Origin: Promethearchaeota archaeon
Lineage (GTDB): Archaea > Asgardarchaeota > Lokiarchaeia > Sigyniarchaeales > SOKP01
Assembly (NCBI GenBank): GCA_019058425.1
Contig: JAHPYZ010000016.1
Coordinates: 7,266-61,764 of the forward strand
Length of the DNA: 54,499 nucleotides
Direction: 5' to 3'
Every line of letters begins with the position of its first letter. Position 1 is the stretch's first letter. Below, one piece after another: positions 32,144 through 37,618 of this stretch. The notes beneath the pieces are model-generated. The model had not been told where the DNA came from. It searched no databases and worked only from the letters and a program-made list of their open reading frames with translations. The translations under genes were made by a program, and so were the position numbers.

Positions 32144-33658
32144 TTAACTTTTTTGCGAGATTTTTAATAATTCATTACTTTTGATAATATTTAATGCGGA
32201 GTTAATATATTCGGATAAAATAGTATCTTCCTTGATATAAGGTATCTGTGTCCGAATGTATTTATGACATTTTTCTAATATTATACTAGATTTCAAAGGT
32301 CTCCTAAAATCAAATGCTTGAGCAGCACATAAAAGTTCAATTGCAAGTATTTTTTCAAGATTTTTTAAGACTTTAAGTGCTTTTCTTGCACTGATTGAGC
32401 CCATACTTACATGATCTTCTTGTCCTCCTCCCGTAGGTATACTATCTGCACTTGCAGGAAAACAAAGTGACTTATTTTCACTAACTAAAGCAGCTGATGT
32501 GTATTGTGTTATCATAAACCCTGAGTTTAAACCGGCTCTTTCAATTAAATTTGAAGGTAAACCCCATTTTCCTTCAATTAATAAGAAAATCCGTCGATCA
32601 GATATATTACCCAGTTCTGATGCTGCAAAACAAATATAGTCTAAAGGAAGAGCAAGAGGTTGGCCATGAAAATTTCCTCCACTATATGATTCCTGTTCAC
32701 AAAATATTATTGGATTATCTGTAACTGAATTAAGTTCACATTCTAATTTTTCTTTGAAATGAATTAAAGCATCTCTAGAAGCCCCATGGACTTGTGGGAT
32801 ACATCTAATAGAATAAGGATCTTGAACACGCTCACAATCCTTATGAGATTCTACAAATTGGGAATCTTCCAGAAATTTCCTAATTCTTTTGGCGACTAAT
32901 ATTGCCCCTTTGTGAGGTCTTAATTGTATCAATTTTTCTGTGAAAGGTTGAGGTGACCCTAAATAACCCTCAATAGTTAATGCACTAATAAGATCAGCAT
33001 GATCTAAACATTTGTTAAATTTTTCAGATATTTTTACTCCAAATGCAGAAATGAATTGTGTACCATTAATTAAGGCTAATCCTTCTTTCGCTTGAAGCTC
33101 TAGTGGTTTCATTTTATGCTCATTTAATATTTTCTCAGTCGGTATATAATTTTTACCATCTTTGGTTATATAACCTAAGCCTATTATGGGTAAAAATAAA
33201 TGAGCTAAAGGTGCTAAATCTCCAGATGCACCAACTGAACCTTTCTTAGGAACATGTGGGATGAAATTTTTGTTTATATGCCAGCAAATTCTTTCTACAA
33301 CTTCAAGAGATATTCCAGAATAGCCTATAGACAAAGCATGAACCTTTAGAATTAGCATTAATTTGGCAATTTCAAATTCAATTGGTGATCCAACGCCTAC
33401 ACTATGACTTTTAAGCAGATTTTCCTGTAATTTTCCCGTTTCGGCTTTTGAAACGCGAGTAGTACATAAAGGACCAAATCCAGTATTTATACTATATACT
33501 AATTTTTCTCCATTTGCTATTGATTGAACAGCTTCATAATTTTTAATGATTCGTTCTTTTACTTCTTCAGTTAGAATTCCTTTGATGGATCCTCTAGATA
33601 TTTCTAAAGCTTTTTGTACAGTTAATTTATCCTTACCATATCTAAAAATATTGTTCAG
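32144..33658 (-). CDS. hutH: Histidine ammonia-lyase with non-canonical start codon
   Basis: Deaminates histidine to urocanate. The MIO cofactor triad Ala-Ser-Gly is in GSVGASGDLAPLAH (A144-S145-G146 from the CTG start), matching Ser143 of well-studied HutH. The catalytic Tyr lies in VYSINTGFGPLC. An ATG-only reading would start at 33358 and lose 100 conserved residues including that Tyr. Upstream of 33358 the frame stays open and homologous (NNIFRYGKDKLTVQKALE) to CTG 33658, ATA 33661 and ATC 33664, right after the hutU TGA at 33665-33667. No ATG, GTG or TTG exists there. I choose CTG. Length 504 aa, normal for the family. Confidence 0.9.
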   Translation of the reverse strand: MNNIFRYGKDKLTVQKALEISRGSIKGILTEEVKERIIKNYEAVQSIANGEKLVYSINTGFGPLCTTRVSKAETGKLQENLLKSHSVGVGSPIEFEIAKLMLILKVHALSIGYSGISLEVVERICWHINKNFIPHVPKKGSVGASGDLAPLAHLFLPIIGLGYITKDGKNYIPTEKILNEHKMKPLELQAKEGLALINGTQFISAFGVKISEKFNKCLDHADLISALTIEGYLGSPQPFTEKLIQLRPHKGAILVAKRIRKFLEDSQFVESHKDCERVQDPYSIRCIPQVHGASRDALIHFKEKLECELNSVTDNPIIFCEQESYSGGNFHGQPLALPLDYICFAASELGNISDRRIFLLIEGKWGLPSNLIERAGLNSGFMITQYTSAALVSENKSLCFPASADSIPTGGGQEDHVSMGSISARKALKVLKNLEKILAIELLCAAQAFDFRRPLKSSIILEKCHKYIRTQIPYIKEDTILSEYINSALNIIKSNELLKISQKS

Positions 33659-33664
33659 TATGAT

Positions 33665-35109
33665 TCACTCTCTAATTTTAATATTCTTTTCATTTCTTTT
33701 TTGAGTTTTCAAATAACTATCAATAATATTTTCTATATAATTATCATCTGCTATAAAAGGTAAAGTTAAATGCCCCCTGTTTTCATTTTCAATATTCCAA
33801 TTATATGCCGTTTCAAAAGCGTTAGTGTTTCTAGCCCAACTTCTTCTTGCAATTCCTCCCATAACATCCCACTCAATAGCATTTTTGATAATATTATCAA
33901 CTCTTTCAGAACCATCTAAAACTAATCCAAATCCACCATTAAAGCATTTTCCAATCCCAACTCCACCTCCATTTGATAAAACCACGTATGTCATACCACG
34001 AATAGCATTTCCAGCAAAACAATGAACCGCCATTTCTGCCATTACATTGCTTCCATCTCTGATATTGGATGTTTCTCGAAAAGGAGAATCCGTTCCAGAA
34101 ACATCATGATGATCTCTTCCTAACATAATTGCTCCAATTTCTCCTTTCCTAACTGATTCATTAAATTTTAAAGCAATATCAACTCTTTCTTTAGCATCCG
34201 CGTATAATATTCGTGCTTTACTTCCTACAACTAAATTATTCTTTTTCGCATCCCTTATCCAATTGTAATTATCTCTATCTTGAGCATTTCTTTCTGGATT
34301 AATAGAATTCATTGCAATTTGATCAGTCTTATCCAAATCTTGTTCATTTCCAGAAAGACATACCCATCTAAATGGACCATAACCATAATCAAAACATATA
34401 GGGCCCATTATATCTTCAACATAAGATGGAAAAATAAATCCTTCAGCAGGATTATCTTTAAATTTTGCAATTTCATCCACTCCAGCATCAAAAACAGCCT
34501 TCATAAAAGAATTACCATAATCCCAAAAATATGTACCTCGATTTGTCATAACTTTGATGAGTTCAAATTGGTCTTTCAATGACTCATCAACTAAATCCTT
34601 AAATCTTTGAATATTGGTTTTTATTAACTCTCTTCCTTCTTGAAAACTAATTTGAAATGGTGTATATCCACCATCATATACTGCATGACAAGAAGTCTGA
34701 TCCGAAGCCAGTTCTACCTTTATATCATTCTCGACAACATACCTCCATAAATCAACTATATTTCCTGAGTATGCTATAGATAAGGGTCTTTTAGTATTCC
34801 TAGCATCTTCAACCCAATTAAAAATTTCATCTAGGTTATCGGAGATTCTTGAAACCCAACCTTGATCGTATCTGGTTCTAATTCTTGAGCCATCTACTTC
34901 AGCAATTACACCTATACCTCCTGCGATCTCTACTGCCTTGGCCTGTGCTCCACTCATACCCCCTAGACCTGAAGATAAATATAAAATACCTCCTAAGTCT
35001 TTATCTTGAGGAATATTTAGATATAATCTGCCAGCATTTAGTAAAGTTATATAAGTTCCATGCACAATTCCTTGAGGTCCAATATACATCCAACCACCGG
35101 CGGTCATTT
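33665..35109 (-). CDS. hutU: Urocanate hydratase, exon 2 (C-terminal part)
   Basis: Carries the larger part of urocanase from MTAGGWMYIGPQG onward, with GGILYLSSGLGGMSGAQ (NAD-binding), GRDHHDVSGTDSPFRETSNI and SNGGGVGIGKCFNGGFG. On its own it would start at ATG 35107, but this point lies in the middle of the conserved YGQMTAGGW block, so it is not an independent gene. Joining from 35109 (AA of the Gln codon) to exon 1 at 35140 gives a 683-residue protein, the usual size of the long, animal-like urocanase type. The TGA stop at 33665 abuts hutH. Confidence 0.85.
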
Positions 35110-35139
35110 ATCTGGGACAGAAGCGAATTGCTTACGCCA
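35110..35139 (-). other. Putative 30-nt bulge-helix-bulge intron in hutU
   Basis: Removing these 30 nt turns Gly-Leu-Ala-stop...stop-Met into Gly-Gln-Met (GGA CAA ATG), the conserved urocanase motif. On the minus strand, helix h is AUU:AAU and central helix H is AUGG:CCAG (three pairs plus one A-G mismatch). The bulges are ACU (35141-35139) and AUA (35111-35109). The intronic hairpin pairs GGCGUAAGC with GCUUCUGUC (one U-C mismatch, two G-U pairs) around the loop AAUUC. Cleavage between nucleotides 2 and 3 of each bulge gives the in-frame join. Exon flanks add GGC-GUC : GAC-GCC pairing. Mobile insertion, bypassing or assembly error are the alternatives. Confidence 0.75.
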
Positions 35140-35746
35140 GTCCATAATTTGCGACGCCGAGGGCTGCAGCTGTCTCGAAATCGTTTTGGTTATCGAACAT
35201 ACCAACCATTAATCCATTAGTAGATATAACTCTTGGAGCATTCGAAGAAGAAGGAAAAAGCCCAACTGGATGTCCAGATGCTATAACTAGAGTCTGATTT
35301 TTAGTTAATTGCTCTAAATAACTTTTTACTAGTCGATATTGCATCCAATTTTGAAAAACTTGTCCTGTTTCACCATAGGTTGTTAATTCATATGGATAAA
35401 GAGCTACATCAAAATCAAGGTTATTATCAATCATTACTTGTAGAGCTTTTCCTTCAATAGTTTTTCCATTATATTCATAGATTGTTTTTGCTTTAATATT
35501 TCCTTCAGGTCGATATCTATAGCCATAAATTCTTCCTCTTGATATTAATTCTTCTAAAAATTCAGAGCTTAATTCATCATGTAGGGATGGGGGTATATAT
35601 CTTAAAGCATTTTTAAGGGCTATTTTTGTTTGAGCTGGTGTCAAGTTATAACCTCTAGATGGTGCTCTTCTAATTCCTTCAATAAATTTAGGATATGGAG
35701 GTAGTTCATCTGGTAATCTAATTTTCATAGCTTTAGTAATATCCAT
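35140..35746 (-). CDS. hutU: Urocanate hydratase, exon 1 (N-terminal part)
   Basis: Hydrates urocanate to imidazolonepropionate. The segment holds the N-terminal features of the long urocanase type: GIRRAPSRGYNLTPAQTKIAL, RGRIYGYRYRPEG, YGETGQVFQNWMQYRL and GMFDNQNDFETAAALGVANYG. Unspliced, translation stops at TAA 35132-35134 after two non-homologous residues. Spliced, residue 203 becomes Gln. Codons near the junction are more GC-rich than the rest of the gene (CTC GGC GTC GCA), which fits selection for RNA pairing. It is the first gene of the hut operon; 138 bp separate it from the LRR gene end upstream. Confidence 0.85.
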
Positions 35747-35884: not shown

Positions 35885-37618
35885 TTATTTAAGAATTTTG
35901 ATCCCTCTAAGTTCTAATTTATGTAAGAAATCTAAATATCCTTTTAAATTGTTTTTTTCGATATTTAGATATTGAAGAGAAGGCAATAACTCTAGTGATT
36001 CTGGTAATTTAGTCAAATAATTAGATCTAAGAAAAAGATACTTTAATTTTTTAAGCCTTCCTATAGATTCGGGAAGATTAGACAATCTATTATTACCTAA
36101 ATATAAATATTTTAAAGATTGTAATGAACCAATTGATTCTGGTATCATATCTAAATCGTTATAATATAAATATAAATGTTTAAGAGATGTGAGAGACCCT
36201 AGTGTTTCTGGAATTGAAATTAATGCATTTTTCCCTAAATCCAAAATTTCAAGTGTTGTAAGGAACCCTATGGACTTTGGAATATCTTTTAATTTATTAA
36301 AACCAATGATTAGGGTTTTTAACATAGGGAGTGATCCAATTGCTTGTGGTATACTTTCTAGCATATTTGTCGAAATGTCTAATTCTAGCAGTGATTTTAA
36401 AGATCCAATTGATTCAGGAAGTTGTTTTAATTGATTTTTACTTAGATCTAATATTTCTAGAGATGATAGAGATCCAATACTTTCAGGTAAATATTCTAAT
36501 TGATTATCATATAAGTTTAATTCTTTTAAAGATGTTAAAAATCCAATCGAATTAGGTAGTGCCTTAATACTATTGATATTAAGCTGTAATATCTCAAGTG
36601 TATTAAGGTTTTTTATTGAATCTGGGATATTTAATAAATTATTACGTTCGCATCTCAAAATTTTCAGTGTTGACAATTCTCCAATCGAATCTGGTATCAA
36701 ATTTAAATTATTATCTGAGATCTCAAGTCTTAATAACGATCTAAGAGATCCTATTGAATCTGGAAGTTTAACCAACTTATTAGATGAAATACTTAAATTT
36801 TCAAGAGAAAGAAGTGAGCCAACACTCTCAGGAAGATGAGTTAAATTATTTGAAGTTAGACCTAGATAAATTAAACTTTCCAATTCACCAATAGATTTTG
36901 GTAATTTTTGCATGTTATTTCCCTTCAAAAATAGTGATGTTAAAGAGGAAAGATTGCCAAAGGCTTCAGGAAGATTAGTTAGATTATTATTTCTTAAATT
37001 AAGTCTTTTTAGCGAATTAAGTTTAGTAATTGAATCAGGAAGTTTTATTATTTTATTATTTCCTAGGAACAGAATTTCTAAGGAATTTAACATGCCAATT
37101 CTTGTAGGTAGTTCTTCAATTTTATTACCGCTTAAATCTAAAGTTTTTAATTTTTGCAACTGGTCAATTGAGTTAGGGATACTTGTTAATTTATTTTCAC
37201 TTAAATCTAGAAGTTCTAAACGTTTCAAAGCTCCGATTTCATCTGGTAGAAAAGTTAATTGATTCGTTTCTAAATGTAGTTCTTTAAGTGAAGTTATTAA
37301 ACCTATTAAGTCTGGAAATTCTACTAAGTGATTTTCACTTAAATCTAAGATTTCAAGGTATGGTAGAGTAAATACTTCTTCAGCAACTGAGTTTAAATTA
37401 TTACCCCTAAAATATAACTCTTTTAACGAAGAAAATAATCCAATTTCTTTTGGAATTTCTGCTAAACCACAGGAATATAAACTTAGAGCTGTAACATGCT
37501 CGTTTTCAGCATAATATCCCAGTGAATAACGTTCTATTTTAGAAATCTCTAATATTGATTCTCCTATTTGACTTTTTAGTATTTCTAATGCTTCTAATTC
37601 ATTTCTTGAAATTGTCAT
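35885..37618 (-). CDS. Leucine-rich-repeat protein (23 repeats)
   Basis: Residues 1-40 form a short helical cap (NELEALEILKSQIGESI). From 41 to about 565 are 23 consecutive 23-residue LRRs of the form SLxxLxLxxNxLxxLPxSIGxL, the SDS22/plant-Ras-LRR-like type found in Asgard genomes. No signal peptide or membrane segment is present, so it should be cytoplasmic and act as a binding scaffold. No GTPase, kinase or LRR-COR domain is attached. The very regular repeats suggest recent internal duplication. The partner is unknown. Confidence 0.92.
   Translation of the reverse strand: MTISRNELEALEILKSQIGESILEISKIERYSLGYYAENEHVTALSLYSCGLAEIPKEIGLFSSLKELYFRGNNLNSVAEEVFTLPYLEILDLSENHLVEFPDLIGLITSLKELHLETNQLTFLPDEIGALKRLELLDLSENKLTSIPNSIDQLQKLKTLDLSGNKIEELPTRIGMLNSLEILFLGNNKIIKLPDSITKLNSLKRLNLRNNNLTNLPEAFGNLSSLTSLFLKGNNMQKLPKSIGELESLIYLGLTSNNLTHLPESVGSLLSLENLSISSNKLVKLPDSIGSLRSLLRLEISDNNLNLIPDSIGELSTLKILRCERNNLLNIPDSIKNLNTLEILQLNINSIKALPNSIGFLTSLKELNLYDNQLEYLPESIGSLSSLEILDLSKNQLKQLPESIGSLKSLLELDISTNMLESIPQAIGSLPMLKTLIIGFNKLKDIPKSIGFLTTLEILDLGKNALISIPETLGSLTSLKHLYLYYNDLDMIPESIGSLQSLKYLYLGNNRLSNLPESIGRLKKLKYLFLRSNYLTKLPESLELLPSLQYLNIEKNNLKGYLDFLHKLELRGIKILK
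35915..37498 (-). repeat. 69-bp coding repeat array of the LRR gene
   Basis: Twenty-three units of 69 bp encode the 23-residue LRRs. The best-conserved segment of the unit encodes LPESIGSLxSL and recurs with only small changes between units 10 and 22. This makes the region prone to copy-number change and to assembly error. Confidence 0.8.

What the first reader, a model, noticed from the sequence alone, without database searches (positions are those of the whole stretch)
35110..35139. 30-nt bulge-helix-bulge intron interrupting hutU mRNA in an Asgard-like genome
Seen: the urocanase frame is interrupted inside YG-Q-MTAGGW by a segment with TAA and TAA in frame. Deleting 30 nt (35110-35139) recreates CAA (Gln203) and the frame with no other change. 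The flanks fold as h AUU:AAU, H AUGG:CCAG (one A-G mismatch), 3-nt bulges ACU and AUA, and a 9-position intronic stem. Symmetric cleavage between bulge nucleotides 2 and 3 gives this exact join. Known: archaeal tRNA-splicing endonuclease removes BHB introns, and cbf5 pre-mRNA introns in Crenarchaeota are the known protein-coding case. Inference: a metabolic gene here needs RNA splicing to make active enzyme. Two independent criteria (protein homology and BHB geometry) point to the same two phosphodiester bonds.
Basis: partly seen in the sequence, partly recalled or inferred. Interest (0 to 1): 0.96.

Follow-up and report, generated by a model that had tools for sequence, protein, structure and literature searches.

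The report
Mobile tRNA-style introns in archaeal urocanase
In a Lokiarchaeal genome the gene for urocanase, a histidine-breakdown enzyme, is interrupted by a 30-base insert with stop codons that is likely cut out of the messenger RNA by the enzymes that splice tRNA; inserts of 29-32 bases interrupt the same gene at the same or a second codon in Thorarchaeal relatives, so this would be a recurrent, probably mobile kind of archaeal mRNA intron.

Summary
Confirmed and extended. hutU (33665-35746, minus strand) is split at Gln203 by 30 nt (35110-35139) with two in-frame TAA. Removing exactly these bases restores a 683-aa urocanase, the only version that passes NCBIfam's hutU cut-off. Four Thorarchaeal-family genomes carry homologous 29-30-nt inserts at the identical bond; the five fit one bulge-helix-bulge (BHB) structure with compensatory changes. 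A second site (Glu126) holds 31-32-nt inserts in four more genomes, and a distant urocanase class has its own BHB insert at the same Gln codon. Two protein searches list about 70 further urocanase stubs ending at these sites. Both exons evolve under purifying selection (dN/dS about 0.09). A blind BHB-plus-frame scan of 1.14 Mb returned the five site-1 inserts and two likely false joins. Around the insert the window's exons resemble Thorarchaeal carriers more than its own genus (rank 1 of 645 windows), suggesting lateral transfer. The genome encodes a catalytic and a non-catalytic splicing-endonuclease subunit and RtcB. No RNA data were available: splicing is inferred, and for the window's RNA alone a rival fold is 1.2 kcal/mol better. 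cbf5 is the known coding precedent; my searches found no Asgard or urocanase case.

The parts
33665..35746 (-). hutU (urocanase) gene, both exons plus insert, stop codon included
   Evidence: frames; TIGR01228 hutU
35140..35746 (-). exon 1: codons 1-202 and first base (C) of the Gln203 codon
35110..35139 (-). 30-nt insert, likely BHB intron; predicted cuts between 35140 and 35139 and between 35110 and 35109; holds two in-frame TAA
33665..35109 (-). exon 2: last two bases (AA) of the Gln203 codon, Met204 onward
35142..35145 (-). H helix, 5' strand AUGG (exonic)
   Evidence: sequence; covarying position
35112..35115 (-). H helix, 3' strand CCAG (intronic)
   Evidence: sequence
35139..35141 (-). 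5' bulge ACU
   Evidence: sequence
35109..35111 (-). 3' bulge AUA
   Evidence: sequence
35116..35138 (-). inner stem-loop: GGCGUAAGC, loop AAUUC, GCUUCUGUC; contains AGCANNNCGCU shared by the five site-1 inserts
35146..35148 (-). outer helix h, 5' strand AUU; pairs with AAU at 35106-35108
   Evidence: sequence
35153..35161 (-). exonic CTCGGCGTC shared by the five site-1 carriers; can pair with GACNGCNGG of exon 2
35097..35105 (-). exon 2 GACCGCCGG, partner of the outer exonic stem

Best explanation
The 30 bases at 35110-35139 are likely a bulge-helix-bulge intron in the hutU messenger RNA, predicted to be cut at both ends by the tRNA-splicing endonuclease EndA and to be closed by a ligase such as RtcB, so that the Gln203 codon C|AA would be restored. 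Shown: the insert, its in-frame stops, the exact frame restoration, homologous inserts at the same bond in four other genomes, covarying BHB helices, purifying selection on both exons, and genes for EnDA-family subunits and RtcB in the genome. Inferred: that EndA cuts it, that RtcB joins it, and that urocanase is made only from spliced RNA. Also inferred: this intron lineage moved laterally from a Thorarchaeal donor into this Lokiarchaeal gene together with about 14 flanking codons, and insertion favours the conserved UAYGGAC or UACGGAG sequences of urocanase, whose AYGG pairs with the 3' end of the intron.
For: Exact frame restoration with a unique product; only the joined protein passes the hutU family cut-off. 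Same bond interrupted in G158, G195, G174, G134, each giving YG-Q-MTAGG when cut between bulge nucleotides 2 and 3. BHB structure pairs 93.3% of 119 cells against 28.6-46.2% for slid versions; six pairs change on both sides; covariation 0.304 against shuffled mean 0.134, reached by 0 of 500 shuffles. H-helix pairs at 0.94-1.0 in unconstrained folds of the four relatives (canonical pairs only in G158). Blind scan of 1,144,738 bp finds seven candidates, five of them the site-1 inserts. dN/dS 0.091 and 0.092 to the two nearest relatives. EndA alpha and beta types and RtcB present. About 70 database stubs ending at the two sites. Patch of carrier-like codons 195-208, rank 1 of 645.
Against: No RNA or protein evidence. 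The window's own RNA alone folds better another way by 1.2 kcal/mol. H has an A-G mismatch here and A-C in G158; at site 2 the H helix is poor in G186 and G176 and improbable in unconstrained folds of all three distinct site-2 RNAs (0.00-0.08). Controls with only five sequences are rough. The carrier-like exon patch could reflect RNA-pairing constraint rather than transfer.
Confidence: 0.9

Rival explanations
1. Split enzyme: the two frames are translated separately (204 aa, and 480 aa from the ATG of Met204) and the halves assemble, with no RNA splicing.
For: Exon 2 begins with an ATG codon, so a 480-aa product is possible.
Against: Gln203, invariant in the eight aligned urocanases, would be lost. 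At site 2 the downstream part (ESGQVCQNW) does not begin with a start codon. Tails read from the insert differ between species. BHB covariation would be unexplained.
Confidence: 0.04
2. Decaying pseudogene: the insert has inactivated hutU.
For: Two in-frame stops; the other hutU genes of its genus in which the site was read have no insert.
Against: dN/dS 0.09 in both exons, as between insert-free relatives; no other lesion in the frame; inserts that recur at the same bond with BHB form.
Confidence: 0.03
3. Translational bypassing: ribosomes hop over the 30 nt, as in phage T4 gene 60.
For: A short stem-loop insert with stop codons; takeoff codon GGA as recalled for T4 gene 60.
Against: The intron splits the Gln codon after its first base (C|AA), so a hop between whole codons cannot read Gln: the triplets before ATG on the 3' side are TAA, AAG, AAA, GAA, CAA in G000, G158, G195, G174, G134 (sequences).
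Confidence: 0.01
4. Assembly or sequencing artefact.
For: The genome is a draft of 143 contigs with 7.44% estimated contamination.
Against: Different but homologous inserts at the same bond in other assemblies; about 70 stubs in the protein database, nine of them in clusters whose longest contig is 70 kb to 1.08 Mb.
Confidence: 0.01

Closest known systems
cbf5 pre-mRNA BHB intron of Crenarchaeota (PMC2738675: abstract and passages read)
   Same: BHB at both junctions, cuts between bulge nucleotides 2 and 3, phase-1 split of a codon for a conserved residue, patchy distribution, hetero-oligomeric EndA in the host.
   Different: Another gene (metabolic), another phylum; two positions in one gene plus an independent insert in a second gene class; sign of lateral transfer with flanking exon. 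Splicing of cbf5 was shown by cDNA; here it was not tested.
HVO_1309 mRNA of Haloferax volcanii (PMC7714728: passages read)
   Same: BHB-containing mRNA processed by EndA.
   Different: Intron in the 5' UTR, not in the coding frame.
Archaeal tRNA BHB introns
   Same: Similar size and geometry; in this genome 12 of 23 over-cut-off tRNA matches span 101-113 nt, suggesting introns.
   Different: The host RNA is an mRNA; no sequence kinship to a tRNA intron was established.

Membership tests
BHB pre-mRNA intron (cbf5 type) | Insert interrupts a conserved coding frame and its removal restores it | tested here: met
BHB pre-mRNA intron (cbf5 type) | BHB: two 3-nt bulges on opposite strands separated by a 4-bp helix, at both junctions | tested here: met
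   Sequence of the five site-1 inserts; G000 and G158 have one mismatch in H. Site 2: full H in G137, one mismatch in G186, only 2 of 4 pairs in G176/G129. Thermodynamic support strong in four relatives, weak in the window.
BHB pre-mRNA intron (cbf5 type) | Cuts between bulge nucleotides 2 and 3 give the join demanded by the protein | tested here: met
   nine of nine class-1 genes; class-2 G219 by reading
BHB pre-mRNA intron (cbf5 type) | Host has a splicing endonuclease, hetero-oligomeric type | tested here: met
   alpha with Tyr/His/Lys and beta without His in 10 of 11 genomes; only beta found in G195. Assembly into a heterotetramer not tested.
BHB pre-mRNA intron (cbf5 type) | RNA is spliced in vivo | not testable with these tools
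   no transcript data on hand
Self-splicing group I or II intron | Catalytic RNA core of hundreds of nucleotides (recalled) | tested here: not met
   inserts are 29-32 nt
Translational bypass element | Hop between whole codons, matching takeoff and landing triplets | tested here: not met
   join splits a codon in phase 1; triplets before ATG differ

The most novel reading that the evidence does not exclude
A family of mobile BHB introns homes into the conserved UAYGGAC and UACGGAG motifs of urocanase messages in Asgard archaea. The intron's 3' end pairs with the target AYGG as it would in a reversal of EndA/RtcB splicing; sites were gained repeatedly (two in class-1 hutU, an independent one at the same Gln codon in class-2 hutU); and copies cross between Thorarchaea and Lokiarchaea with flanking exon. 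This would be a living archaeal case of intron gain and spread in protein-coding genes.
Probability: 0.45. Interest if true: 0.95.

Novelty: new variant of a known kind. Interest (0 to 1): 0.92.

Why it matters
Passages of PMC7714728 (2020) and PMC2738675 (2009) name cbf5 as the one coding gene with a reported or confirmed BHB intron. Here a second, metabolic gene, in the archaeal group nearest to eukaryotes, carries such inserts recurrently, at several positions and with a sign of lateral spread. Gain, loss and movement of protein-spliced mRNA introns become testable in many genomes; databases list such genes as 128-aa and about 209-aa urocanase stubs, so annotation misses the enzyme; and the inserts are ready substrates for Asgard splicing endonucleases.

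Tried and rejected
Same intron in other genes: covariance model R1 over 222 phylum genomes gave only the five hutU copies it was built from (stricter filters). De novo BHB-plus-open-frame scan of 1,144,738 bp from seven genomes: seven candidates, five being the site-1 hutU inserts; L168 and L170 were rejected by my reading as two adjacent genes each, the downstream one starting at or shortly after the join; a Pfam check of this failed on wrong coordinates and was not repeated. Scan thresholds were set with the known inserts in view, and the scanner misses the site-2 inserts. Search for ORFs split relative to a homologue, 801 ORFs: five rows, four of them hutU, one weak (28% identity, L184) not pursued; it did not list the window's in-frame insert. 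hutH looked truncated (404 aa) but its frame is open upstream without ATG, and the 506-aa reading matches histidine ammonia-lyase: no second intron there. G167 looked split near codon 231 but holds an N-run. The joint alignment of both sites put them out of register and was not used; a site-2 alignment was not taken further. One search's 141 insert-free records include L034, an artefact of its own insert (140 without it), and some genes fetched twice.

Energy did not single out the window's BHB. Literature searches listed no paper on a urocanase intron or an Asgard mRNA BHB intron; the library lacks bioRxiv and most subscription journals, and PMC2738675 mentions unconfirmed predictions in other protein-coding genes that I could not inspect.

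Full report
What is there. On the minus strand lies a urocanase gene (hutU, 33665-35746) beside histidine ammonia-lyase, imidazolonepropionase and glutamate formimidoyltransferase genes. Its frame is open for 204 codons, meets two in-frame TAA within the insert, and is open again for 480 codons. Deleting 35110-35139 restores ANYG-Q-MTAGGW and one 683-aa frame; no other 30-nt deletion within 20 nt gives the same product. The stubs match the NCBIfam hutU profile at positions 3-121 and 123-538 (72.8 and 292.6 bits); the joined protein scores 388.6 and alone passes the cut-off of 375. Solved urocanases 6uek and 1x87 read YGQMTAG at the same place. That this Gln contacts NAD is recalled, not tested.

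The host. The window lies in a 4.64-Mb draft genome of 143 contigs, 97.58% complete, 7.44% contaminated. A urocanase match was found in 130 of 196 relatives and in 156 of 227 genomes of the phylum. The nearest genes, 88-89% identical, are in the same genus. A genus-mate's contig matches a named Lokiarchaeota record by length (271,561 bp, JAEOTA010000081.1); contigs of family f8 match Thorarchaeota records (58,516 bp, JAEOTX010000078.1; 4,837 bp, DAOWNS010000156.1). Genome names rest on these length matches.

The same bond elsewhere. Four f8 genomes carry inserts at the same bond: G158 29 nt; G195, G174 and G134 30 nt. All five, cut between bulge nucleotides 2 and 3, give YG-Q-MTAGG, and all share the hairpin AGCANNNCGCU. 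On their alignment the named BHB structure pairs 93.3% of 119 cells, against 28.6-46.2% when partners are slid by 1 to 3 columns; six pairs change on both sides; covariation is 0.304 against a shuffled mean of 0.134, reached in 0 of 500 shuffles. With five sequences this control is rough. One covarying pair has its 5' base in the exon: Tyr201 is TAC where the intron has CCG and TAT where it has CCA.

A second site and a second gene class. Four other f8 genomes have inserts splitting Glu126 in phase 1 after UUACGGAG: G186 and G137 31 nt, G176 and G129 32 nt. In G219 a urocanase of another class (35-38% identical) has a 32-nt insert at the same Gln codon; its unconstrained fold shows a 4-bp helix, a 3-nt 5' bulge and a 9-bp inner stem, H pairs at 0.91-0.99. 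Its removal is in phase 0 and I see no similarity to the others, so it looks independent. In all, 10 of the 156 genomes with a match hold such an insert; DNA was read for only part of the 156, the rest were judged from hit tables.

Many more in databases. Searching the 209-aa stub of G174 and the 128-aa stub of G186 listed 120 proteins each, of 1333 and 1167 hits, 199 distinct. A pattern on the ends put 41 at site 1 and 40 at site 2. By eye, five in each set run on into the exon or simply end, and one of site 1 is the window's own, leaving 35 and 35. Tails such as HMSAAR, QEIAAR, QVLAVR and, as in the window, LA (P0025, P0027, P0032) follow NYG. Stubs that stop a few codons upstream (P0017, P0034, P0044, P0113; P0154, P0158, P0159, P0160, P0164, P0167) may mark further sites or errors. 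For class 2, P0200 (5 contigs, up to 105 kb) ends at CYGQM and may be another case; six other listed class-2 proteins without MTAG or MTCG after YGQ looked like ends, variants or frameshifts.

Not decay. dN/dS of the window gene is 0.091 and 0.092 to its two nearest relatives and 0.077 and 0.091 to two further ones, against 0.080-0.116 between insert-free genes; both exons behave alike.

Lateral origin. All five site-1 carriers share CTCGGCGTC just before the insert; 0 of 141 insert-free locus records has it. In 14-codon windows the gene is normally closer to its two sister genes than to the four Thorarchaeal carriers (median difference -0.22); at codons 195-208 it is closer to the carriers (+0.12), the highest of 645 windows, and again highest against seven Lokiarchaeal and against seven Thorarchaeal non-carriers. 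At conserved residues the same codon is used by carriers in 75% inside codons 193-210 (13 codons) and 42% outside; by the sisters 58% and 72%. The patch can pair with exon 2, so RNA constraint is an alternative or additional cause.

Machinery. Two EndA-family genes: one nearest to chain 3p1z_B with Tyr, His and Lys; one with Ser in place of His. Of 11 genomes, 10 have both kinds. PMC2738675 (passages) ties the unconventional BHB of cbf5 to the hetero-oligomeric enzyme. RtcB is present. Of 23 over-cut-off tRNA matches, 12 span 101-113 nt, longer than an intronless tRNA. PMC11291895 (passages) reports introns in 92-95% of tRNA genes of three other Asgard genomes.

Specificity. A scan of 1,144,738 bp from seven genomes for a BHB whose removal joins two coding-like frames gave seven candidates: the five site-1 hutU inserts and two likely joins of adjacent genes; with the 3' cut shifted by 1 or 2 nt it gave 1 and 2. 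Within what this scan can see, such introns are rare and hutU is a hot spot.

Against. The window's RNA folds 1.2 kcal/mol better another way; the three distinct site-2 RNAs also fold better without the BHB core by 1.4-3.3 kcal/mol with H probabilities of 0.00-0.08; in G195, G174 and G134 the H helix is at 0.99-1.0 but the best fold also closes part of the bulges. EndA or bound proteins would have to select the BHB. There is no transcript or protein evidence.

Relation to the known. PMC7714728 passages name cbf5 as the one earlier mRNA example and add a 5' UTR case; PMC2738675 passages say that no gene other than cbf5 was confirmed though others were predicted. My searches found no urocanase or Asgard mRNA case in the open-access library. 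I file the insert as a BHB pre-mRNA intron by anatomy and comparison, splicing untested, and as a new variant because of several sites in one metabolic gene and the sign of lateral transfer.

Noticed in passing
window 33358-33664 (-): The hutH frame is open back to the hutU stop, but no ATG, GTG or TTG precedes 33358 in frame; the 506-aa reading matches histidine ammonia-lyase almost end to end, so the start codon is probably unusual.
   Followed up: partly
L035 176-388 and L038 262-426: A second, broken hutU fragment lies upstream of the intact-frame hutU in G176 and G170.
   Followed up: no
L239: In G219 a remnant resembling the start of class-1 hutU (MTFDASKAMTIRLPAELPPEPIFDPQYRRG) precedes the class-2 urocanase, as if one class had replaced the other.
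   Followed up: no
proteins P0017, P0034, P0044, P0113 and P0154, P0158, P0159, P0160, P0164, P0167: Urocanase stubs that stop shortly before the two known sites; possible further intron positions or frameshifts.
   Followed up: no
L214 (G000:C43:3023-3135): tRNA-like match of 113 nt whose extra bases appear to lie in the T arm, a possible non-canonical tRNA intron.
   Followed up: no
window 35885-37618 (-): Upstream neighbour of hutU encodes a 577-aa leucine-rich-repeat-like protein, by reading only.
   Followed up: no
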